Below, one piece after another: positions 32,526-42,255 of a stretch of 64,000 nucleotides of DNA. The notes beneath the pieces were generated by a model that was given only the letters and a program-made list of their open reading frames with translations, made no database searches and was not told the DNA's origin. Made by a program: the position numbers and the translations under genes. Source of the stretch: Cerasicoccus sp. TK19100 (GTDB lineage: Bacteria; Verrucomicrobiota; Verrucomicrobiia; Opitutales; Cerasicoccaceae); contig NZ_JAPWDU010000001.1 in the NCBI RefSeq assembly GCF_027257155.1, positions 248,001 through 312,000 on the forward strand, given 5' to 3'. Every line of letters starts with the position of its first letter. Position 1 is the stretch's first letter.

Positions 32526-32550
32526 TGGTCGGGCTGCAGGGATTCGAACC
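32526..32550. other. attL: duplicate of the tRNA-Pro 3' end
   Basis: Twenty-five bases identical to 42179-42203, covering CCA, the acceptor 3' strand and most of the T arm. The match stops on both sides. Between this site and the repressor gene (32551-32672) is an AT-rich stretch with repeated TTTAGCA and TTCGCGAA-like words that may be integrase arm sites; no gene is seen there. Confidence 0.85.
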
Positions 32551-32672
32551 TTCTTTATGGCGGTTTTACAAGGGGCTGATATACTGCAAGTTATGGAATA
32601 TTAGCGATTTGCGAATCTGCCAAAATTCGCGAAAATCGGTGAAATTTAGCAAGGGTAGGCGGAGTTTAGCAC

Positions 32673-33239
32673 TTATTTATCACTCGTGAAGTTGCCACTT
32701 TGGTTCCAGTAGACTGATTTTAAGAGAGTTTCGGTCATGGACCCTTGTTTGGTCCCATCATTCGGAAAGCCCTCGCTGAAAAGTGTGTTTAGATAACTAA
32801 GAAAATTATCACCGCCTAGTAGCTCGATAAGATTATACTCCGTTGCAATACTTGATAGCGAATGTAGCACTGCGGCATACACTGCGAGACCTTGATTTGA
32901 TTCGAAGCCCGCTTTGGTGATTTGTGTAGCAAGTGCTGAAACATTCTCATGCAAGGTTTTTAGGCTGTTGCTGTCTTTGCTGCTTTCCTCGATCCAAAGT
33001 TTATAACTTTCTTCAGAGTAAGGCCGGCCTCTCCAATCCTTTTCTAATAGTTTGATCTTACCTTTTTCAGACTGAACCCAAACGCCTAGATTTGCCTGGA
33101 TGGCAAATGCCAAGCGTGGAGATAGGTCGAGACGGCCGCCCTCTATATGACGAATGGTCATTATGGATACACCTAGCTTGTCGGCTAAGTCGACCTGGGT
33201 TAGCCCGCATGCATTTCGAATGTTTTTGAGCACTTTCAC
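32673..33239 (-). CDS. Xre/cI-like repressor of the element
   Basis: A 188-residue protein starting at a GTG. Residues 4-50 form a helix-turn-helix of the Xre type (LTQVDLADKLGVSIMTIRHI). The rest is helical, without a recognisable Ser-Lys autoprotease (LexA-like) pair, so induction may work through an antirepressor rather than RecA. It is divergent from the excisionase-like gene with two operator-like sites between them, the layout of a lysogeny switch. It reads leftwards towards attL and is the only leftward gene at that end. Confidence 0.85.
   Translation of the reverse strand: MKVLKNIRNACGLTQVDLADKLGVSIMTIRHIEGGRLDLSPRLAFAIQANLGVWVQSEKGKIKLLEKDWRGRPYSEESYKLWIEESSKDSNSLKTLHENVSALATQITKAGFESNQGLAVYAAVLHSLSSIATEYNLIELLGGDNFLSYLNTLFSEGFPNDGTKQGSMTETLLKSVYWNQSGNFTSDK
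32675..32687. repeat. 13-bp repeat ATTTATCACTCGT, left copy
   Basis: Same 13 bases as 42143-42155, so one copy lies near each end of the element in the same orientation (125 bp inside attL, 24 bp inside attR). Here it covers the last codons and stop of the repressor gene. It may be an integrase arm-type site; chance or recombination is possible. Confidence 0.4.
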
Positions 33240-33241
33240 TA

Positions 33242-33307
33242 GGTTTCAGTTCATGACGGTTATTTTTACTTTGACAAGCGCATATTTAACCGTCAGTTCA
33301 TGACGGT
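33242..33307. promoter_or_regulatory. Two operator sites in the repressor/excisionase switch region
   Basis: Site 33289-33307 is a perfect 7-bp inverted repeat, ACCGTCA-GTTCA-TGACGGT. Site 33242-33260 keeps the spacer and right arm (GTTCA-TGACGGT) with a degenerate left arm. Centres are 47 bp apart and a TTGACA box (33271-33276) lies between them. This fits binding by the adjacent Xre protein to control both directions. Confidence 0.7.
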
Positions 33308-33310
33308 ATT

Positions 33311-33508
33311 ATGGTTAAGCTCATTTCCGCAAAGCAGTTATCCGAAAGTGAAATATTCCCAGATGATCCGCGGCCATCGCCTGCAATGATCTCTGACATG
33401 GCCCGGCGCCGCCTAATTCCATCTGTAAAGTTGGGTCGTTACCGTTACTTCGACCCTCAAGAAGTCGAACAGCATATCAAAAGTAAGCTTACTGTCCGCG
33501 CTCGATGA
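33311..33508 (+). CDS. Excisionase/AlpA-like DNA-binding protein
   Basis: A 65-residue protein with a winged-helix MerR/HTH_17 pattern: SPAMISDMARRRLIPSVKLG, then RYRYFDPQEVEQHI. This is how small excisionases and AlpA regulators recognise DNA through a short helix-turn-helix plus wing. It is the first gene of the rightward operon, 4 bp from the operator at 33289-33307, and its stop overlaps the next start (ATGA). It probably directs excision or switches on the operon. Confidence 0.75.
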   Translation: MVKLISAKQLSESEIFPDDPRPSPAMISDMARRRLIPSVKLGRYRYFDPQEVEQHIKSKLTVRAR

Positions 33509-33732
33509 CCGATCCCCATCAAGAACTATTGGATGCGGCGCAGAAGCTGGGTGCTACCTTAGGCAAGCTGACACAGGCAACCCTCATCCACCTTGCAATG
33601 CCGTCGACCGAATCACGGCAGGAAGTCGTTATTCAGCAGGCTGACTTTCTCACCAGCTTCAAGGCCTACAACCAATCGGTTGAAACTCTCCAGGATGCAG
33701 AGGCCTCGATTAGCAAAAAGGAGCTAAATTAG
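33505..33732 (+). CDS. Small helical protein of the element (75 aa)
   Basis: A 75-residue, probably all-helical protein with Gln and Leu rich heptads (LLDAAQKLGATLGKL). It overlaps the excisionase-like gene by 4 bp and abuts the next gene (stop and next ATG adjacent), so it is real and translationally coupled. I do not recognise a family. Confidence 0.65.
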   Translation: MTDPHQELLDAAQKLGATLGKLTQATLIHLAMPSTESRQEVVIQQADFLTSFKAYNQSVETLQDAEASISKKELN

Positions 33733-33996
33733 ATGTCAGGGAAATATCAGAAAATCGCTGATCTTGGTAATGAGGTTATTCAGTTATCTGCCAAGATCCA
33801 ATCGGCAACCCGTGCTTTTGTCTTCGATCCATCAGAGGACACCGGGCAAGAGCTGAATCAGGTTCTAGCTGAATATGGGGAGCGGCTTGAGCAGTTTGAA
33901 AGTCAGTATGACCAGGCTCTGACAGTTAAAGTTGCTGAGACCCTGAAAGAGCAGGGGGAGTCAAGGGAAACCATTCGCAAAGCCTTTCGAGTATAG
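33733..33996 (+). CDS. Small helical protein of the element (87 aa)
   Basis: An 87-residue, acidic, helical protein (DLGNEVIQLSAKIQSATRAF, later LNQVLAEYGERLEQFE). Its ATG follows the previous stop directly. It resembles the previous small protein in length and helix pattern, so the two may be distant duplicates. No family recognised. Confidence 0.65.
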   Translation: MSGKYQKIADLGNEVIQLSAKIQSATRAFVFDPSEDTGQELNQVLAEYGERLEQFESQYDQALTVKVAETLKEQGESRETIRKAFRV

Positions 33997-34026
33997 AACA
34001 AATAACCCGTATCACAAACAAACAAA

Positions 34027-34494
34027 ATGAATATCGAAGAAAAACTGAAAGAGGCACTGACCGAGAATAACCGCTTGAGGGCAGCTATTGCCGCAGATCG
34101 AGTGAGTAATGGAGATACTCCCAAGCCTGCACGAAGCTTCAAAACTCTTACTGAAGCACAGGCGGAAATCACCTTGCTTCAAGAAGCGCTCTCTGAAGAG
34201 AAGATGGCCACTGAGAAGCTTAAGGCGATTTCATTTGCCTTGGGTATTTCTGAAGAAGCCGATATCAAGGCTATGAGTGCTGAAGAGGTTAAGGGATACC
34301 TTTCAAAAGCAATCGAGTCCAAGGCCAGTTCCCAAGCTCAGCAAATCTGTGCGCAGCAGGGGATTGACTATGAGCTACCCACCCACGCCAGTGAAAAGCC
34401 GACAAACTCTCAAGCAGAGCAACCGAAGGCATCTAACCCACGTGACCGCGCCGCCGCAGAGTTCACGAAACAAGTTAAAGCGATTCACCAATGA
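34027..34494 (+). CDS. Coiled-coil protein, weakly scaffold-like (155 aa)
   Basis: A 155-residue protein: an N-terminal coiled coil (about 1-25), a second helix pair (about 45-70), a disordered Ser/Gln/Pro region, and a basic helical tail (NPRDRAAAEFTKQVKAIHQ). Phage scaffolding and capsid-assembly proteins have this arrangement of coiled coils followed by a short basic C-terminal capsid-binding helix, and the RAAAEF-like end is reminiscent of theirs. That is a weak, pattern-level likeness only. It overlaps the next gene by 4 bp. Confidence 0.55.
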   Translation: MNIEEKLKEALTENNRLRAAIAADRVSNGDTPKPARSFKTLTEAQAEITLLQEALSEEKMATEKLKAISFALGISEEADIKAMSAEEVKGYLSKAIESKASSQAQQICAQQGIDYELPTHASEKPTNSQAEQPKASNPRDRAAAEFTKQVKAIHQ

Positions 34495-34946
34495 ACCCGA
34501 TAGCAAAATTATTCGATCCGAATAACCTCGCCGATGTGAAGGCTGCGAAGAAAAAACTTCAGAAGGCTGAGGAAGAAGCGCAGCAGGCGGAGCGTGCTGC
34601 GCAGGCACTTGAGCAAGAGTATGATGCATTAAGCTCTAGAGTCTCCGAGCTCGAAAAGGTGCATAACATTCTAGTTGATAACAAAGCTGAACTACAAAAG
34701 CGGCTGAATAGCATTCAAACCCTTAAAGGCTGTGCTTGGCGGAATGAATCGAATGCAACTCTTGGGTTTCATGTGCATAATGAAATCCTTGCTCAACGTT
34801 GCGGCATTATCGAGAGCATTTATACCAGAGCAGCAGCTTTACGAGATGCGCTTGAAGATGCTGACCATTACATTGCAGAGTCTGAGACTGAGCTATCAGA
34901 CGCAAAAACCGAATTAAAGGAATTTCTTAGCAGGCATAAAAAGTGA
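34491..34946 (+). CDS. Long coiled-coil protein of the element (151 aa)
   Basis: A 151-residue protein with two long coiled-coil stretches, about 14-70 (KKKLQKAEEEAQQAERAA onward) and about 105-150, separated by a region with two possible turn motifs. It begins in an ATGA overlap with the previous gene and is the last gene of the operon before the hairpin at 34984. Function unknown; a structural or tether role is possible. Confidence 0.6.
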   Translation: MNPIAKLFDPNNLADVKAAKKKLQKAEEEAQQAERAAQALEQEYDALSSRVSELEKVHNILVDNKAELQKRLNSIQTLKGCAWRNESNATLGFHVHNEILAQRCGIIESIYTRAAALRDALEDADHYIAESETELSDAKTELKEFLSRHKK

Positions 34947-34983
34947 TTGTTCGATGGCATGTTGAGATTGATCGAGACACATA

Positions 34984-35015
34984 GGGCCCGCTTTCCGCCA
35001 ATCGGAGGCGGGCCC
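34984..35015. terminator. GC-rich hairpin after the small-gene operon
   Basis: GGGCCCGC (34984-34991) pairs with GCGGGCCC (35008-35015); inside, TCCG pairs with CGGA around a CCAAT loop. Only TTCT follows, so termination may be partial. It separates the early-type small genes from the tape-measure gene 35 bp downstream. Confidence 0.6.
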
Positions 35016-35049
35016 TTCTACATGAAGCACACACAAAACTTTTCAGATT

Positions 35050-37602
35050 ATGGCAACAAGCAGAGTAGATATTTTAATGAAAATGCGGGCTGATCTTAAA
35101 GAGATCAAACAACTGCAAAGAGAGGTCACTAATACCAATCAGCAATTCAAGTCCCTTAGCTCTGTTCTGCGTAGTGGCCTGGGCTTTGCTGGCTTGGTTG
35201 GAGGGATTGGCCTTACTACGGCCGGTATTACCAGCCTGATTCGAAGCTCAATTCAGCTCGGATCGAATCTTGATGACACAAGCAAGAAACTTGGTGTTTC
35301 AACCGATTTCCTACAGGGCTTCTCATTTGCCGCCCGGGAAACAGGTACCAGCACCAGAGCCGCAGAAATGGGCCTACAGCGCTTTATTCGGCGTCTGGCT
35401 GAAGCATCCACAGGCAAGGGTGAATTGCTGCCGATCTTGGAGCAATACAACATCCAGGTTCGCAACACTGATGGAGTCACCAGAAACGCAATTGACGTGC
35501 TCGGTGATCTTGCGGAAGTCATCAAATTTGCTGAGACGCCAGCAGAGCGATTGCGAATTGCTTTCAAGGCCTTTGATTCTGAGGGCGCCGGTCTGGTGAA
35601 TGTCCTACGCGATGGCAAAGAAGGTTTCGACCGCTGGATTGAATCCGCAAAGGAAGCAGGGCAGGTAATGGACCAAGAAACGATTAAGCGGCTTGCAGAG
35701 GCAGAGAATGCCTTGGAGCGCTATCAAACTGACCTGACTATCATTGCGGGCAAGATCGTTGCATCCCTTCAACTTTCCGGCGAGCAGATGGGAGAGGCAT
35801 ACTCTCTGATTACAGATGGCAGCTTTGAGCAAGGCTGGATTCGCTTAAACCAAGCACTGGGACAGCTACCACAGGACTTCGGAGGCGTTCAAACGGCAAC
35901 TGACGCAGCGACAGACGCAATGGCTGCACTCAACACAGAGACGCTCGTCACGATTGAGACGGCTGAGGAGGCCGCCAAGAAGCTCAAAGAGCTTGAGCGA
36001 GCTCAGGAGGGCCTTGCTAAGGCTCGTGAAGAGCTGAGCCAGATTCGCCGTTATGGTATGGAATCCCCCGGCCAGAGAGTCGACCGCCTACGCCGCTCTG
36101 CAATCATCGACACACTGAATGCTGATGTCCGCCGAAATTCCGGAAATGAAACTGAAGCCATCCGATTTGAAACCGAAGCAGCAGAAAAGCGGGCAGAGGC
36201 ATTGAAGCTCGAACATCAGCTACTTGAGCAAAAGGAGCAGCTCACCGGAGAGTTTCGAAATGCCCAACTTGAAGAGCTTTCGACCGCACAGCAAATTCAG
36301 GTTGTCGAAAAGGAGTTGGTTGAAAATCAGCGCCAGGCCAAGTTGGCTATGGGGCTTGAGTCTGGCCAGCAGCTCGAACGTCTACTGTCTCTCGGCAAGC
36401 AACGTTTGGCGCTTGAGGGTAAATTGAAAGTCCTCAAGGAAGATGAGACTCGCGCAACGGACTCCCGAGTTCAGGCAGAAATTGACGTCACCCGTGAGCA
36501 GATTGAGCAGGTTCGCCAGCAAAAGGAATTGGCAGCGATCCGCGGCGACAATGGCACAATTGAAACCCTCATTGGCCAGGAGCAGAATCTCATTGATGAG
36601 CTGATTGGCAAGTATGGGGCTTTGCGTGACAGCATCGTTGAAACGGATCCTGCCGGGGCAGCAGCGCTGACAACCCGCATCGAGGGCTTGAAGGTCGAAC
36701 GATATCGGGCAGGAGCCTCAAGCAACACTGGCGGGGTTACATTCGCTCAATCAGCTCAAGAGCAGTATTCCCGCTATCAGAACGAATACGGCGATTATGG
36801 AGTTAGCGCAATCGGCGGCGCCCGGGCGGCACTGCAGAACTATGTCGCAGATGTTGGCCAGCTTGGGCAGGTATTCAACCGCACGACTTCACAAATTGCC
36901 ACAGGCATGGAAGGGTCGATTCAGCCCGCGCTCGATGGCCTGATTAATGGAACGCTGACTTGGGAAGATGCGCTAAGCCTGGTTGGTAGCTCGATGGTCA
37001 CAACCCTTGTGCAGGCCTTCACAACGATGGTCACTCAAATGGTTGTGCAGTATATCGCTAATCAGATCCTCATGGCGACAAGCGCAAGTGCCACTCAAAC
37101 GGCGCTAGCAACTCAGATGGCAGCTTTGGGGGCTGCAGTGAATGCCTCATGGGCCCCGGCTGCAACCTCTGCCAGTATCGCAACCTATGGAAGTGCTGCA
37201 GGTATTGGGTCTGCTGCATATCTCGCTTCGCTGGCCTCGACCGTAGCAGCAGCAAGCGCAGTGCAAGGAGCCGGCGCCATAGACATTGGCGGATTCTTTG
37301 GCGGCTTCCGTGAGCGTGGCGGGCCGGTAGAAGCTGGCGTGCCCTACATCGTAGGTGAAAAGCGCCCTGAAGTCTTTGTTCCAAATGTGCCAGGCAACAT
37401 CGTTCCTTCACTGAGTGAGTTTGTTACTGACTACAGTGGTGGTGGCAGTGGCACCTCGACCAATGGAAAGCCAAGTGAAACGAACATTGCTCTGATTGGC
37501 ATGGAGTCAGAAATGCGCCGTTTCATGGAATCTGCTAAGGGGCAACGAATTGTTTTGGATGCGATGAACCGCAACCGCACACGCATGGGCGTATTTGGCT
37601 AA
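35050..37602 (+). CDS. Phage tail tape-measure protein
   Basis: An 850-residue protein. Residues 1-40 are a coiled coil, 45-75 a Gly/Ala-rich hydrophobic segment (GFAGLVGGIGLTTAGIT), then the family segment LGSNLDDTSKKLGVSTDFLQ, long coiled coils (about 300-540), an Ala-rich hydrophobic region (about 640-740) and the conserved end GGPVEAGVPYIVGEKRPEVF. All are hallmarks of tape-measure proteins of long-tailed phages, which set tail length and leave the tail during DNA injection. By the usual rule of about 0.15 nm per residue the tail would be near 125 nm. It appears complete, yet no tail tube, chaperone, tail tip or capsid genes are present in the element. It lies between two hairpins and may be an independent transcription unit. 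Confidence 0.9.
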   Translation: MATSRVDILMKMRADLKEIKQLQREVTNTNQQFKSLSSVLRSGLGFAGLVGGIGLTTAGITSLIRSSIQLGSNLDDTSKKLGVSTDFLQGFSFAARETGTSTRAAEMGLQRFIRRLAEASTGKGELLPILEQYNIQVRNTDGVTRNAIDVLGDLAEVIKFAETPAERLRIAFKAFDSEGAGLVNVLRDGKEGFDRWIESAKEAGQVMDQETIKRLAEAENALERYQTDLTIIAGKIVASLQLSGEQMGEAYSLITDGSFEQGWIRLNQALGQLPQDFGGVQTATDAATDAMAALNTETLVTIETAEEAAKKLKELERAQEGLAKAREELSQIRRYGMESPGQRVDRLRRSAIIDTLNADVRRNSGNETEAIRFETEAAEKRAEALKLEHQLLEQKEQLTGEFRNAQLEELSTAQQIQVVEKELVENQRQAKLAMGLESGQQLERLLSLGKQRLALEGKLKVLKEDETRATDSRVQAEIDVTREQIEQVRQQKELAAIRGDNGTIETLIGQEQNLIDELIGKYGALRDSIVETDPAGAAALTTRIEGLKVERYRAGASSNTGGVTFAQSAQEQYSRYQNEYGDYGVSAIGGARAALQNYVADVGQLGQVFNRTTSQIATGMEGSIQPALDGLINGTLTWEDALSLVGSSMVTTLVQAFTTMVTQMVVQYIANQILMATSASATQTALATQMAALGAAVNASWAPAATSASIATYGSAAGIGSAAYLASLASTVAAASAVQGAGAIDIGGFFGGFRERGGPVEAGVPYIVGEKRPEVFVPNVPGNIVPSLSEFVTDYSGGGSGTSTNGKPSETNIALIGMESEMRRFMESAKGQRIVLDAMNRNRTRMGVFG

Positions 37603-37606
37603 TAAT

Positions 37607-37639
37607 GAAGGCTGCCCGTCGCCAACGTTAGCAGCCTTC
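37607..37639. terminator. Hairpin after the tape-measure gene
   Basis: GAAGGCTGC (37607-37615) and GCAGCCTTC (37631-37639) form a perfect 9-bp stem four bases past the tape-measure stop. No T-run follows. It also argues that the next gene starts at the ATG at 37658 rather than at a TTG at 37595. Confidence 0.5.
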
Positions 37640-37657
37640 AAAGTATCTCAATCGATA

Positions 37658-38248
37658 ATGGATGATGTGTTAAAAGAGCAGATCGGGTCAAGGGGCAACT
37701 ATACCATGACGCCCAATGATTTGATCTCGAACCCAAAGCTAAGCCCCAAGTCTAAAGTGGTTTGGCAGTATATGGCGTCTAAACCTGCCAACTGGCAATT
37801 TAGTGCACAGCGCATATCGAAGGCCATAGGCATAGGTCGTAAGGCTGTCTTGGGTGCCATTGCTGAGCTTAAAGAGTATGGCTGGCTTGACTCCCAAAGA
37901 TGCGGCGACGGCAGAGTAAATTATGTGCTTCAATACCCCCAATCCCAAAAAGGGACTGTGGATGTCCAAAACGCCACGGTGCCAAAAAGCCACGGTGCCA
38001 AAACGGGACCGCTAAGTAATATAGATGTAGAAGTAAAAAAGAATCAGAATAAGAGCGCCTTCGGCGCTTGGCGGCAAAGAGAAGCGAGGGTAGATTATAA
38101 GACTGTAGATATAGTGGATGTAGCAGAGCCTGAAGACTGGAGAGCAATAGCCAAGAAGCTTTACCCGAATGAGAAGGCTATAGACAAATACAGTAACTGG
38201 AATGACACCCCATACTGGCTTAAAGAAGAAATCATAGGTGCAGCCTAA
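37658..38248 (+). CDS. Winged-helix (HTH_36-like) replication-type protein
   Basis: About 196 residues. Residues 16-75 hold a winged helix of the kind found in phage and plasmid replication initiators: MTPNDLISNPKLSPKSKVVW, then FSAQRISKAIGIGRKAVLGA and AELKEYGWL. A basic low-complexity linker follows and a C-terminal segment EDWRAIAKKLYPNEKAID. I choose the ATG at 37658 because the sequence before it contains the hairpin. It may open the replication origin of the element; the strongly folded site 0.6 kb downstream is a candidate. A purely regulatory role cannot be excluded. Confidence 0.65.
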   Translation: MDDVLKEQIGSRGNYTMTPNDLISNPKLSPKSKVVWQYMASKPANWQFSAQRISKAIGIGRKAVLGAIAELKEYGWLDSQRCGDGRVNYVLQYPQSQKGTVDVQNATVPKSHGAKTGPLSNIDVEVKKNQNKSAFGAWRQREARVDYKTVDIVDVAEPEDWRAIAKKLYPNEKAIDKYSNWNDTPYWLKEEIIGAA

Positions 38249-38343
38249 AAAGGAATCTATTAGGCTTACAGCAGCTACGCAGGTTCCTCGAAAGAGCGTT
38301 ATTTTCTCACGACACTTAATTTTTCAAAAAACCACACAAAGCA

Positions 38344-38793
38344 ATGAAGACAGCAGATAGCATGAATCAAGCAGTGGCCCTAAGCCAGGGACTGTTCACG
38401 AAGTTAGACCTTCAGGAGTTGAAAGAATCCGGTTGTCCTGGATTCCGTTCAAACCGGGTTTACCTGCAAGAGGTAGTCGATGACGTTTTTCTTACGAATC
38501 GATCATCAGCCATTCGAAACAAGCTGAAAGATCGACTTCAGCTTATCAGTGTTGATGCCTTAATGTATGAAAAGCTGCAGTGCCTTTGTGAGGGTGTCTC
38601 AGGCTTTCAGAAGGCCGCTAGAATTGAGCAAGAGCTTGAGCGCCGCTCAGGGACGCCAGAGCCTTCCGAAGACGCCCAGACGCTTTTTGCTGAGATCGAC
38701 CAACAAGCAAAGGCGCTGGCTGCGCAGATCGAAAAGCTAGACCAGTTGCTTCAACAGGTCTACAAGGTAACAGAGGGAGAGGTTTCATTGTAG
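38344..38793 (+). CDS. Possible small-terminase (Nu1)-like DNA-binding protein
   Basis: A 149-residue protein. The segment LQELKESGCPGFRSNRVYLQ (about 23-42) has the G-C-P-x-F-R-x-x-R-V-Y pattern of winged-helix domains in Nu1-like phage terminase small subunits and excisionases. The C-terminal half is a long helix with heptads (about 110-145), as oligomerisation helices of small terminases have. Satellites such as SaPIs use their own small terminase to redirect packaging, which would fit here, but this likeness is at motif level only. A structured non-coding site follows directly. The gap 38249-38343 before it may hold its promoter. Confidence 0.5.
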   Translation: MKTADSMNQAVALSQGLFTKLDLQELKESGCPGFRSNRVYLQEVVDDVFLTNRSSAIRNKLKDRLQLISVDALMYEKLQCLCEGVSGFQKAARIEQELERRSGTPEPSEDAQTLFAEIDQQAKALAAQIEKLDQLLQQVYKVTEGEVSL

Positions 38794-38848
38794 CAGTAAG
38801 CTTATTCCTGTTGACTTTGATCACGTACTGAGTGAATGATTTTTACAT

Positions 38849-38991
38849 GGCCGTGATAAGCCTACCAGAATCGAATGAACGAGACACTGAACTTGACCCC
38901 GCGTCAGACGGGGGAGGGCCTACTCGTTCGGGCCCAATTATCACCCCCCGTCGGCGGGGTCTCTCCATGTCAGTAGAGGCCGTGATAAGCC
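38849..38991. other. Structured non-coding site: nested hairpin between 14-bp direct repeats
   Basis: GGCCGTGATAAGCC occurs at 38849-38862 and 38978-38991. Between them, 38895-38914 pairs with 38945-38961: GACCCCGC with GCGGGGTC, a small bulge, then GACGGGGG with CCCCCGTC. Inside the loop GGGCC (38916-38920) pairs with GGCCC (38931-38935). There is no convincing gene in 38794-39018. Such a flanked, long hairpin fits a replication origin, a packaging (cos/pac) site or a structured RNA; nothing in the sequence decides among them. Confidence 0.6.
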
Positions 38992-39018
38992 AAGGCTGGC
39001 AGCAACAGAAAGAACGAA

Positions 39019-39531
39019 ATGAATGTTACCGCCGACAAAGTCCGCCCAGGTAGAAAGACGAAATTAATGTCCCTGTCATCTGGAGGGATGACGTGGGTTC
39101 GAGTTAAGCCCCCGATAACACCAAACACAGAGGAAATGCTGATTATTGCTAAAGGGCTAAAGCGTGAGCTTTTGGCGATTATTGAGCCAGCTTTTGATGT
39201 TATGCCAGGATTGTGCCTTCGGGCGCTTAAAAATCTTTTACGGGATCCACAGGCCCTACAGGAGGCCAGTCAAAGGCGCTTTGATTTAACTTTGGCTGAT
39301 ATTTTGGCAAATGGCTGGGGCTATGGTGGAGAGATTTCAGATGAGGATACTGAGGAAAGTATTGGTATGCATCATCAATCAAGATGCTACAATGCAATGC
39401 AGGATGCTTTGCCTCTGCTCTTGCTGATAGATAAGTTGCCTTTTGAGGTCATCGAAGCCGAAGCAGCAATCACATGGAATGAGAATCACCCTATGATGGA
39501 GCCAAAGAAAATTTGGCAATCGGAAGTCTAG
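39019..39531 (+). CDS. Hypothetical protein of the element (170 aa)
   Basis: A 170-residue soluble protein, mixed helical, with a basic N-terminus and an acidic middle (GGEISDEDTEESIGMHHQ). It has no signal peptide or membrane helix and I do not recognise a family. It starts 28 bp after the structured site, has AGAAAGAACG as a possible ribosome-binding region, and is followed by a textbook terminator, so it is probably expressed. Confidence 0.6.
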   Translation: MNVTADKVRPGRKTKLMSLSSGGMTWVRVKPPITPNTEEMLIIAKGLKRELLAIIEPAFDVMPGLCLRALKNLLRDPQALQEASQRRFDLTLADILANGWGYGGEISDEDTEESIGMHHQSRCYNAMQDALPLLLLIDKLPFEVIEAEAAITWNENHPMMEPKKIWQSEV

Positions 39532-39555
39532 GAAGCTCTTCTAAATGGATTCTCG

Positions 39556-39576
39556 AGCCCGGTTCGCCGGGCTTTT
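39556..39576 (+). terminator. Intrinsic terminator of the rightward genes
   Basis: AGCCCGG, loop TTCG, CCGGGCT followed by TTTT: a 7-bp GC-rich stem with a UUCG-type tetraloop and a T-run, 25 bases past the stop of the 170-residue gene. It also overlaps the end of the leftward membrane-protein gene. Confidence 0.85.
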
Positions 39577-40117
39577 ATATTACAAGAACGAAGAGGGCAA
39601 TTGCTGCAATCAGCAGGTGGAGGAATGTTAAATAAACCTGAATGCAAAATACATTGATCATTCCCTTCTCTGACAAAAAGGGGTCGGATAATCCCTTTAG
39701 GTAGTTCTTCTTCATCGTAGACTTTAGCGGTCCCCAAAATGGAGAAATCAACTCTTCCCCTAGCTCTTGTGGGGATATGCTAATGTTATTAAGGGAAATT
39801 TGACCTTGTTGAGATTGAAGGCCTGCCTGGATCGATTCAAGGCTTCGAACCCTTGCGCCTATCGAAAGACAGGAAATGTGAGCTCCGAAGCCAAACATCA
39901 ATGAGAATACCAGCAGCGAAATTGACCATTTAAGCGAAGCAGTTCCTGCGAGCTCAATGATTGCAGGCGTATTTGAAAGGATGATTGCTATCATCGCTGC
40001 AACGCCAGATAGAGTCCACTTCGTATAGCCCTCGATGCTGGTGTTGTTTTTTGCGATAGTTATCCAAAAGAAGGATAGTAGCTGGCCCTCGTGGCTGTTC
40101 TTCTGGATGTTTGCCAT
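39575..40117 (-). CDS. Three-helix membrane protein, accessory gene (180 aa)
   Basis: A 180-residue protein with membrane helices at about 33-53, 62-84 and 155-178 and a soluble loop of about 70 residues between the second and third. It lies 12 bp after the soluble-protein gene on the same strand, so the two look like a cotranscribed pair at the accessory end of the element. Such cargo pairs in phages and satellites often serve in phage exclusion or abortive infection, but nothing in the sequence proves that. No family recognised. Confidence 0.6.
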   Translation of the reverse strand: MANIQKNSHEGQLLSFFWITIAKNNTSIEGYTKWTLSGVAAMIAIILSNTPAIIELAGTASLKWSISLLVFSLMFGFGAHISCLSIGARVRSLESIQAGLQSQQGQISLNNISISPQELGEELISPFWGPLKSTMKKNYLKGLSDPFLSEKGMINVFCIQVYLTFLHLLIAAIALFVLVI

Positions 40118-40129
40118 ACTTGAAATTGT

Positions 40130-40513
40130 TTATATATCGCAAAATTGAGAATCGACCGTGCTGGGAAGGTTGGAGAGGACGCTTATGTAGAAATCGTTCA
40201 GAATGTAGTTGTAGGTTTTATCGTCCAGTCGATCAACTGTCTCAGACTTGGGGACGATATTTACAACTTTCATTTTATTGATCGATTGGAGTCCTTTGGT
40301 TTGTTGCATGAAAAAAAGTGTGCTCATTGGTCTTTTGTCACCATCTTCGCATGTATAAACAAAGTATGGTTCCGTGATTGTGGAATCAGCGTTCACCCTG
40401 TCTTCTGCCTCATGATCGCGGTCCCAGCCATTATGCAGAAAGTTATCCATCATTTGGATCACTGTATCTATTGGGAGTTTGGAGGTGAGAACAATGCTTC
40501 GCTTAGTAGACAT
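40130..40513 (-). CDS. Soluble hypothetical protein, partner of the membrane protein (127 aa)
   Basis: A 127-residue protein of alternating strands and helices (RSIVLTSKLPIDTVIQMMDN onward), beginning about 38 bp from the end of the integrase gene. No known motif, signal peptide or membrane helix. It is cotranscribed with the membrane protein downstream. Its base composition is lower in GC than the tape-measure gene beside it, as cargo genes often are. Confidence 0.55.
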   Translation of the reverse strand: MSTKRSIVLTSKLPIDTVIQMMDNFLHNGWDRDHEAEDRVNADSTITEPYFVYTCEDGDKRPMSTLFFMQQTKGLQSINKMKVVNIVPKSETVDRLDDKTYNYILNDFYISVLSNLPSTVDSQFCDI

Positions 40514-40551
40514 ACCTTGTGTCTGATATAAACAGCTAGGGAAGTCCAGTA

Positions 40552-41736
40552 CTAAGCGGAAATGGAAATGATCTTATTTCCTTTAGTTGGTAGTATATTC
40601 CAAAACTCCGCGGCTTCCTCTTCGGTTTTAACGTCTAGGTAGTGATCGCGGATCACGTCCGTTGAGTTGCCTGCCTGAAGACTCACCCGGCCAACGTCGC
40701 CTGTTTTGGCCAGGAGCATTGAGCAGAAGGTATGGCGCATGATGTCTTTGCCCAGCTCAAAGCGCTTGGCCAGGTGCTGACGCATACGCCGGCAGTTGCC
40801 CGGTAGGATAGGGTAGTGCTTTGGCGGAAATCGCTCTAGCCAGGCTTTCAGGTTTGGCTGAATGTCCACCATGCGCTTTTCATCGACCTTCGACACTGAG
40901 GCCGGAACATGGATGCGACCGCCTTCCATCGAAATATGCTCAGGCTGTAGCTTGGTGATTTCGCCGTGGTTGTAGTCGGGCCGGATCCCCGCAAAGAGGC
41001 AGAGGGCTATGTGAGGCACCATTACGCCGTCTTTGTAGCTCTGGACGTATTCCATGAGCTTGGCGGCTTCGGAGGCCGTCAACGTCGAGGCCTCGCCCTT
41101 GTTGCGGTTGACCTCGCGCTTGCCGTAATGCTTGAGCTTGTCGGTGGGGTTGGCGCCCGCCCATTTCTCATCAATGAAATACTGCCAGAGCTTCCGCAGA
41201 TAGGAGCGGCGATTGTTCCACGTCTTGAGCGCCGAATCCCGGCCGATGTAGTCGCCAAGGTCTAGATCGGTAATATCGCCAATGTTCTTGTCGGTGAAAT
41301 GGGCTTTGAGGCGATTCAGTTCAACCTCTGTGTTGCGGTAGTGGATAGCCGACAGCGTGCCGCGGTTCTTTTCCTCGAATCTGACAAGCAGGTAGGCGTC
41401 TACGGCTTCGCTCAGAGGCTTGTGGACAAGATCATGGTGGTTGTGCTCCAGAAAGAAGGATACGGCCTCTGTGAGGCTTTTGCCGGTCCCGTCCAAGAGT
41501 TGATAGGCGGCGTATGCTTCCTTGTGCTGATCCTCATTCAGCTTTGATGGCACCGTGTGCAGCTTTACTTCGCTGTTCTGGCGCCTGAGCTCGTATGTCG
41601 ATCGCTCGGCGTAGGCTTCATCCTTGGACTGGAATTTCTTCCGGACTTGGCGCCCGTCAATAGTGCCTGAAAGCAAATAGCCTTTGTTCCCAGATGGGTA
41701 TTTGAAAGTCTTTACCTTGAATGGCTTGGAGTTCAC
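40552..41736 (-). CDS. int: Tyrosine recombinase (integrase) of the element
   Basis: A 394-residue integrase. The N-terminal region carries an arm-binding and a SAM-like core-binding domain (about 85-200); the catalytic domain shows R252 (FAGIRPD), K283 in the beta-hairpin, K330-x-x-R334 (KDIMRHTFCSML, with Lys in place of the common His), Asn357 where His/Trp is usual (AGNST), and the nucleophile Y366 (RDHYLDV). It should recombine the 25-bp tRNA-Pro site for integration and excision. It overlaps the DUF2513 gene by 4 bp, so both are made from one transcript starting near the tRNA. Confidence 0.92.
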   Translation of the reverse strand: MNSKPFKVKTFKYPSGNKGYLLSGTIDGRQVRKKFQSKDEAYAERSTYELRRQNSEVKLHTVPSKLNEDQHKEAYAAYQLLDGTGKSLTEAVSFFLEHNHHDLVHKPLSEAVDAYLLVRFEEKNRGTLSAIHYRNTEVELNRLKAHFTDKNIGDITDLDLGDYIGRDSALKTWNNRRSYLRKLWQYFIDEKWAGANPTDKLKHYGKREVNRNKGEASTLTASEAAKLMEYVQSYKDGVMVPHIALCLFAGIRPDYNHGEITKLQPEHISMEGGRIHVPASVSKVDEKRMVDIQPNLKAWLERFPPKHYPILPGNCRRMRQHLAKRFELGKDIMRHTFCSMLLAKTGDVGRVSLQAGNSTDVIRDHYLDVKTEEEAAEFWNILPTKGNKIISISA

Positions 41737-42122
41737 AGGTCGAATCCCAGTTTCTCTTTGGCCTGTTGTTTGATGTAGGCTGTAGCTAAGTCCTTGATGA
41801 TCTCAATAGACCAACCTCCAATTTGAGAGGCCCCGCTTTTGGTCTTCTCCCAGATGCCTTTGTCTCGGATGCTGTCTAAGAGGTCATGCCCAGCCCAAGT
41901 CATTCTTTCGCAATTCGCAATAAGAGTGGTATCTTCGAGTTCATCCACTGGCCCAATGGCATAACCTGCTTCGATCAAAAGAGCCATATGGTAATATTGT
42001 TCTTCCTCAGTCCAGTTGCTGAGATGCTCAACATCACTTAAGATGGACTCAATTGGCTCGTTATCCCGGTCATGTTCCAGGCATAGGAGGATAGACCGAA
42101 TCAGATCCCAATCACGTTTCAT
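41733..42122 (-). CDS. DUF2513 domain protein
   Basis: A 129-residue protein starting MKRDWDLIRSILLCLEHD and containing YHMALLIEAGYAIG and LTWAGHDLLDSIRD-like segments (here MTWAGHDLLDSIRD), the standard DUF2513 pattern. These are small winged-helix-like proteins found in phages and mobile elements; function is unknown. It is the first gene of the leftward integrase operon, 57 bp from the tRNA end. It might regulate integrase or act as a recombination directionality factor. Confidence 0.85.
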   Translation of the reverse strand: MKRDWDLIRSILLCLEHDRDNEPIESILSDVEHLSNWTEEEQYYHMALLIEAGYAIGPVDELEDTTLIANCERMTWAGHDLLDSIRDKGIWEKTKSGASQIGGWSIEIIKDLATAYIKQQAKEKLGFDL

Positions 42123-42142
42123 AGATGCCAGAATGATAAGTC

Positions 42143-42155
42143 ATTTATCACTCGT
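42143..42155. repeat. 13-bp repeat ATTTATCACTCGT, right copy
   Basis: Identical to 32675-32687. It overlaps a GATAA-GTCAT-TTATC inverted repeat (about 42135-42149) upstream of the DUF2513/integrase genes, so it could be an integrase arm site or an operator of the integrase promoter. Confidence 0.4.
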
Positions 42156-42178
42156 CAACCGCTATCCCGCATGGATAT

Positions 42179-42203
42179 TGGTCGGGCTGCAGGGATTCGA
42201 ACC
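42179..42203. other. attR: 3' end of tRNA-Pro
   Basis: Right copy of the 25-bp direct repeat; it contains the encoded CCA end, acceptor strand and T-arm of the tRNA. Because the duplicated segment restores the gene, the tRNA remains intact after integration. Confidence 0.85.
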
Positions 42204-42255
42204 CTGGACCTCGTCGTCCCGAACGACGCGCGCTACCAGACTGCGCTACAGCCCG
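42179..42255 (-). tRNA. tRNA-Pro (anticodon CGG)
   Basis: On the minus strand the sequence folds as a full cloverleaf: acceptor CGGGCTG paired with CAGCCCG, D-arm GCGCAGTCTGGTAGCGC, anticodon stem CGTCG/CGACG with loop TTCGGGA (anticodon CGG, reading CCG), T-arm CAGGG-TTCGAAT-CCCTG, discriminator A and an encoded CCA. It is the integration site of the element on its left. Confidence 0.97.

What the first reader, a model, noticed from the sequence alone, without database searches (positions are those of the whole stretch)
32526..42203. Minimal tRNA-Pro element that carries a tape-measure gene but no other virion genes
A 25-bp att duplication, an integrase, a repressor/excisionase switch and a full-length tape-measure protein (850 residues) define an inserted element of about 9.65 kb. 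No capsid, portal, large terminase, tail tube, baseplate or lysis gene could be found in it. Known satellites (P4, PICIs, PLEs, cfPICIs) remodel or supply heads and packaging; one that brings its own tape measure, which would set the length or identity of a helper's tail, would be a new strategy. The alternative is a decayed prophage, but the intact operons, terminators and switch argue against random decay.
Basis: partly seen in the sequence, partly recalled or inferred. Interest (0 to 1): 0.82.

Follow-up and report, generated by a model that had tools for sequence, protein, structure and literature searches.

The report
Tiny phage satellite carrying a tail ruler
A 9.65-kb mobile element in a Verrucomicrobia genome (a Cerasicoccus relative) carries an intact gene for the protein that sets and fills a phage tail, but none of the large head or packaging genes; it is probably a phage satellite that puts its own ruler protein into a helper phage's tails, a strategy shown in 2026 for one cholera-bacterium satellite family and here seen in unrelated elements of a distant phylum.

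Summary
A perfect 25-bp duplication of the tRNA-Pro 3' end (32526-32550, 42179-42203) bounds a gene-dense 9.65-kb element with integrase, repressor/operator/Xis switch, RepO/DnaD-like gene and an intact 850-aa tape-measure protein (TMP). No other gene except the integrase exceeds 217 aa, so portal, large terminase and a normal-size capsid gene are absent; a small tail tube or tail chaperone cannot be excluded. Three congeners have the same tRNA-Pro locus without an adjacent integrase.

Decay is unlikely. TMP lies in the regulated early run of genes, and two other genomes of the order hold analogous elements (9.8 kb at tRNA-Lys, 13.3 kb at tRNA-Thr) with TMP as the only recognised virion gene. 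Those two are homologous to each other (integrase 33%, Xis 51%). Two compact Mu-like elements, one in this same genome, also carry a TMP.

Best explanation: a satellite that builds chimeric tails with its own TMP. This is inferred; no helper or transfer was shown. The strategy is not new: V. cholerae PLEs do it (Nature 2026, PMC12987554). New are the phylum, the TMP-only minimalism and the apparent recurrence. New variant of a known kind; interest 0.55.

The parts
32526..32550 (.). att repeat, distal copy
   Evidence: 25-bp perfect repeat of the tRNA-Pro 3' end
32675..32690 (+). candidate integrase arm-type site (direct repeat, copy 1)
   Evidence: 16 bp, 94% identical to 42143-42158; 12-bp core found only at these two places in the window, 0.22 expected by chance; function inferred
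32673..33239 (-). HTH repressor, 188 aa
   Evidence: HTH_3 6e-9; PHROG transcriptional repressor
33247..33307 (.). regulatory switch with two identical 14-bp operators CAGTTCATGACGGT (33247-33260, 33294-33307)
   Evidence: the second copy lies in a palindrome ACCGTCAGTTCATGACGGT
33311..33508 (+). Xis/AlpA-like HTH protein, 65 aa
   Evidence: HTH_17 6e-4; 32% to a protein beside a related integrase in G054
33505..33996 (+). two small ORFs (75 and 87 aa), unknown
   Evidence: no family at E<0.01
34027..34494 (+). 155-aa ORF, unknown
   Evidence: no family
34491..34946 (+). 151-aa coiled-coil protein; candidate tail chaperone or scaffold, untested
   Evidence: coiled-coil matches only
34983..35016 (+). 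strong RNA hairpin just before TMP; terminator or regulatory
   Evidence: dG -26.3 kcal/mol, z -4.8
35050..37602 (+). tape-measure protein, 850 aa, intact
   Evidence: PHROG TMP families down to 2.6e-23; 47% to C. arenae prophage TMP; RcGTA TMP model 1.8e-4
37595..38248 (+). RepO/DnaD-like replication initiator or helicase loader, up to 217 aa
   Evidence: PHROG DnaD-like helicase loader 5e-12, HTH_36 4e-6
38344..38793 (+). 149-aa ORFan
   Evidence: no match in 373 genomes or 50,697 phage records; fold uninformative, pLDDT 48
39019..39531 (+). 170-aa ORFan
   Evidence: no match in 373 genomes or 50,697 phage records
39555..39574 (+). intrinsic terminator at the end of the plus-strand run
   Evidence: 8-bp stem, dG -14.7
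39575..40117 (-). 180-aa probable membrane protein, cargo candidate
   Evidence: hydrophobic segments seen in the translation; no family
40130..40513 (-). 127-aa protein, cargo candidate
   Evidence: no family; weak tblastn similarity (27%, E 0.001-0.003) to IMG/VR contig L033
40552..41736 (-). tyrosine integrase, 394 aa
   Evidence: PHROG integrase 4e-25; closest relatives about 40%
41733..42122 (-). DUF2513 protein, 129 aa
   Evidence: Pfam 2e-23; PHROG 585 2.5e-27
42143..42158 (+). candidate arm-type site (copy 2)
42179..42203 (.). att repeat inside tRNA-Pro
42179..42255 (-). tRNA-Pro(CGG), integration target

Best explanation
An integrated phage satellite. Shown: integration at tRNA-Pro with att duplication, an integrase, a repressor/operator/Xis switch, a replication gene and an intact TMP in the same plus-strand run. 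Inferred: infection or induction of a siphophage helper lifts repression; the element excises and replicates; the helper supplies head, packaging, tail tube, tip and lysis proteins; the satellite's TMP replaces the helper's in tails that carry satellite DNA. The satellite thereby makes chimeric particles and may weaken the helper, evade tail-directed defences, or change the inner-membrane DNA-entry step. Because its TMP equals its phage relative's in length, the role is more likely identity or compatibility than tail length.
For: att, tRNA and integrase; the same tRNA-Pro locus without an adjacent integrase in three congeners; all genes intact, 91% coding; TMP lies in a plus-strand run (33311-39531) that starts at the switch, includes RepO and ends in a terminator; TMP full length with third-position-biased divergence from the phage TMP (differences 41/34/65% by codon position); analogous elements G117 (L035, tRNA-Lys, 9.8 kb) and G071 (L044, tRNA-Thr, 13.3 kb), each with TMP as the only recognised virion gene, homologous to each other in integrase, Xis and a 128/134-aa HTH gene, so TMP was kept through deep divergence; G071 also carries a prophage with portal- and terminase-like genes and its own TMP (L094). 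Precedent: deleting tmp from PLEs cuts transduction by 96-99.9% (PMC12987554).
Against: No helper is known: the own genome has a single TerL, in a Mu-like head-only fragment. No packaging or capsid-remodelling gene could be recognised, nor a tail chaperone, which PLEs do carry. No near-identical copy of this element was found, so recent mobility is unproven. Expression and transfer cannot be tested here. The sister elements were found by searching with TMP, so their number is not a frequency.
Confidence: 0.6

Rival explanations
1. Remnant of a siphophage prophage whose virion genes were deleted apart from TMP; TMP is a passenger.
For: The TMP is clearly of phage origin and its closest relative sits in a prophage with tail genes around it (L034). 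The same genome holds a head-only Mu-like fragment, so prophage decay does occur here. TMP is the largest tail gene and so the likeliest to survive a random deletion.
Against: No pseudogene; tight packing; TMP stands between early and replication genes, not next to deletion scars or other tail genes; the L035/L044 pair kept the same minimal set across different families and different tRNAs.
Confidence: 0.25
2. An anti-phage island: the TMP is a decoy or dominant-negative subunit that poisons tail assembly of infecting phages, as Tai and Rta do by other means.
For: Tail assembly is a known target of satellite- and prophage-borne defences (PMC11364771; PMC12987554).
Against: Rta is a small dedicated inhibitor of 80 aa, whereas here a full-length, conserved TMP is kept. 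A decoy would not need both an intact N-terminal domain and an intact C-terminus, nor a place among the replication genes. No PADLOC family matches except coiled-coil hits to the 151-aa protein.
Confidence: 0.1
3. The element encodes more of a tail in its small ORFs (tube, chaperone) and is a tail-supplying satellite or tailocin-like particle.
For: Standard profiles miss the position-inferred tail tube and chaperone of a related prophage, so ORFs of 149-170 aa could hide them.
Against: No tail tip or hub-sized gene, no fibre and no lysis gene; no ORF other than TMP and integrase above 217 aa.
Confidence: 0.05

Closest known systems
PLE satellites of Vibrio cholerae (ICP1 satellites; PMC12987554)
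   Same: Small integrated satellite with its own TMP, shown there to enter satellite virions and make chimeric tails
   Different: PLEs also carry a tail chaperone, some a baseplate hub, and a capsid-remodelling protein; their helper ICP1 has a contractile tail and their TMP has 20% identity to the helper's. Here the TMP is of siphophage type, no chaperone or hub was recognised, and the host is in another phylum
PICIs and capsid-forming PICIs
   Same: About 10 kb, integrase, divergent regulator/Xis switch and replication gene; some cfPICIs have putative tmp genes (Extended Data Fig. 10 legend of PMC12987554)
   Different: No capsid, portal or terminase genes as in cfPICIs; no recognisable TerS or capsid-remodelling gene as in classical PICIs
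PICMIs (PMC10803314)
   Same: Minimal marine satellite without capsid-remodelling genes
   Different: The abstract mentions no TMP, and the hosts are Vibrionaceae; only the abstract was read
Siphophage prophage of Cerasicoccus arenae KCTC 12870 (L034, L082)
   Same: TMP 47% identical, 857 v 850 aa
   Different: Carries portal- and terminase-sized genes and a full-looking tail region (portal and TerL inferred from size and position), while the element has none

Membership tests
Phage satellite (broad) | Integrated element with its own integrase and att site but without a full virion gene set | tested here: met
Phage satellite (broad) | Helper-dependent induction and transfer | not testable with these tools
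   needs culture
TMP-encoding satellite (PLE-like strategy) | Full-length TMP gene in the element | tested here: met
TMP-encoding satellite (PLE-like strategy) | Tail chaperone (TAC) next to tmp | tested here: inconclusive
   no hit, but the profiles also miss the chaperone candidate of a related prophage
TMP-encoding satellite (PLE-like strategy) | Satellite TMP incorporated into satellite virions | not testable with these tools
   needs particles
PLE (as a lineage) | Homology to other PLE genes | not tested
   no PLE sequence was compared directly; tblastn of TMP against phage records matched tail-protein genes of other phages over 18-20% of its length in the listed rows
cfPICI | Own capsid, portal and terminase genes | tested here: not met
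   no ORF of suitable size
P4-like / classical PICI | Recognisable capsid-size redirector or TerS | tested here: inconclusive
   none recognised; 149-aa ORFan fold failed, pLDDT 48
Decayed prophage | Broken genes or fragments of a late operon | tested here: not met
   no broken gene, 91% coding; TMP inside the run with RepO

The most novel reading that the evidence does not exclude
In this order of Verrucomicrobiota, TMP has been taken up repeatedly as the only (or nearly only) virion gene by unrelated small mobile elements: two integrase types (this element; the L035/L044 family) and one Mu-like transposable type (own genome C2; G021). If so, swapping the tail ruler alone is sufficient and advantageous for a satellite, and 'tail-identity satellites' are a general class.
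Probability: 0.4. Interest if true: 0.78.

Novelty: new variant of a known kind. Interest (0 to 1): 0.55.

Why it matters
Well-studied satellites were known to manipulate heads and packaging; PLEs showed in 2026 that a satellite can also replace the tape measure. If elements in a distant phylum do so with TMP as the sole recognisable virion gene, tail manipulation is a widespread satellite strategy, and the minimal part needed is TMP itself. That gives a clean system for asking what a satellite gains by replacing it: tail length, DNA entry, exclusion of the helper, or escape from tail-directed immunity.

Tried and rejected
Searching viral contigs with the integrase, the L053 TMP and the L044 277-aa gene gave no useful relatives. 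The closest integrase relatives of this element and those of the L035/L044 type sit in elements without a detected TMP. TMP relatives in about 100 viral and genome contigs mostly lie in ordinary phage tail modules; L196, L195, L140 and L046 looked odd at first but did not show a clean att-bounded TMP-only element. A TerS role for the 149-aa ORF was considered but not supported (no homologue, pLDDT 48). The TMP N-domain hits to calmodulin in PDB are weak and judged spurious. Counting TMP-only elements as a frequency was rejected because they were found by searching with TMP.

Full report
What is there. A perfect 25-bp repeat (32526-32550 and 42179-42203) duplicates the CCA-ending 3' end of tRNA-Pro(CGG). 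The integrase sits at the tRNA end on the minus strand with a DUF2513 gene. At the other end a repressor faces an Xis-like gene across a switch with two identical 14-bp operators. From the switch a plus-strand run (33311-39531) carries small genes, TMP, a RepO/DnaD-like gene and two ORFans, and ends at a terminator. Three congeners have tRNA-Pro beside the same downstream gene with no integrase next to the tRNA 3' end within about 1.3 kb, consistent with an empty site; one of them (G104) has small transposase-like ORFs there.

TMP and absence of other virion genes. The 850-aa protein matches many PHROG TMP families over its N-terminal and C-terminal parts and is 47% identical to the 857-aa TMP of the C. 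arenae prophage over nearly its whole length. No other gene matches a virion family in Pfam, PHROGs, NCBIfam or PADLOC. Since only TMP and the integrase exceed 217 aa, portal, large terminase and a normal capsid gene are excluded by size. A control limits the claim: the position-inferred tail tube and chaperone of the C. arenae prophage also score nothing in PHROGs, so a small tail gene could be hidden in the 149-170-aa ORFs.

Intact or decayed? Coding density is 91% and nothing is broken. TMP codons differ from the phage TMP by 41, 34 and 65% at positions 1, 2 and 3, which shows constraint on the protein over the whole divergence, though not specifically within the element. TMP lies between early and replication genes, not in a late-operon remnant. 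A stable hairpin directly before TMP leaves open that TMP is regulated apart from the genes upstream.

Relatives. Most relatives of the TMP lie in ordinary phages and prophages. Two do not. In G117 (MAG JAUIHT01, Verrucomicrobiia) a 9.82-kb element with a 57-bp att repeat at tRNA-Lys, and in G071 a 13.35-kb element with a 47-bp att repeat at tRNA-Thr, hold integrase, Xis, a replication gene, small genes and a TMP (631 and 510 aa), with no other recognised virion gene (the G071 TMP also matches Pfam PhageMin_Tail). One further G071 gene (277 aa) matches a PHROG of unknown function. The two elements are homologous: integrase 33%, Xis 51%, a 128/134-aa HTH protein 36%, in similar order. They belong to different families (f1 and f22), so TMP has persisted through long divergence. 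They are not close relatives of the window's element: integrase and TMP are the only detectable links, so the arrangement may have arisen independently. G071 also has a prophage with portal- and terminase-like genes and its own TMP (L094), a possible helper; the two TMPs are about 23% identical, close to the 20% reported between PLE and ICP1 TMPs.

A second surprise is in the window's own genome: a compact Mu-like element on C2 (MuB with AAA/TniB domains, Mu transposase C-terminal domain, HTH genes, a coiled-coil protein, a 734-aa TMP, repressor) without a convincing head gene, and a homologue in G021 that adds a Mu portal-protease fusion.

How it probably works. The best reading is a satellite whose TMP replaces the helper's in chimeric tails. 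The precedent is direct: PLE TMP is found in PLE virions, helper TMP is excluded, and tmp deletions cut transduction by 96-99.9% (PMC12987554). [quoted passage not shown] For the window's element, excision, helper use and incorporation are inferences. The near-equal length to the phage relative argues that the swap is about identity rather than length.

Novelty. The strategy is known since March 2026; a satellite of this composition, in this phylum, with no other recognised virion gene, was not found in the literature searched (only open-licence papers are held). The sister elements were found by TMP searches, so recurrence is suggestive, not quantified.

Noticed in passing
L053 2699-14325 (own genome, G000:C2 about 238.7-250.3 kb): Compact Mu-like transposable element with a 734-aa TMP and no convincing head gene; homologue in G021:C87 (L223/L222, about 12 kb) with MuA 39%, MuB 41%, TMP 26% and an added Mu portal-protease fusion.
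   Followed up: partly
L209 14501-19967 (own genome, G000:C3 about 826.5-832 kb): Mu-like head-only module: TerL, Mu portal, I-type protease, cement protein and major head protein, with no tail or transposase genes seen; it holds the only TerL found in the genome.
   Followed up: partly
window 34983-35016: Very stable hairpin (dG -26.3, z -4.8) between the coiled-coil gene and TMP; terminator, processing site or regulatory element.
   Followed up: no
window 34491-34946; L035 7704-8312; L044 12510-13109; L053 9446-10312: Each of these TMP elements has a 150-290-aa coiled-coil-like protein near TMP (for L035 and L044 judged from the sequence only); candidate scaffold or tail chaperone.
   Followed up: no
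L053 18951-19997: Gene that looks like a Zot-type (filamentous phage) ATPase near the Mu-like element; called from the sequence only.
   Followed up: no
L044 7453-8286: 277-aa gene after TMP in the G071 element matches PHROG 24956 (unknown function, 5e-26); may be a further virion gene.
   Followed up: partly
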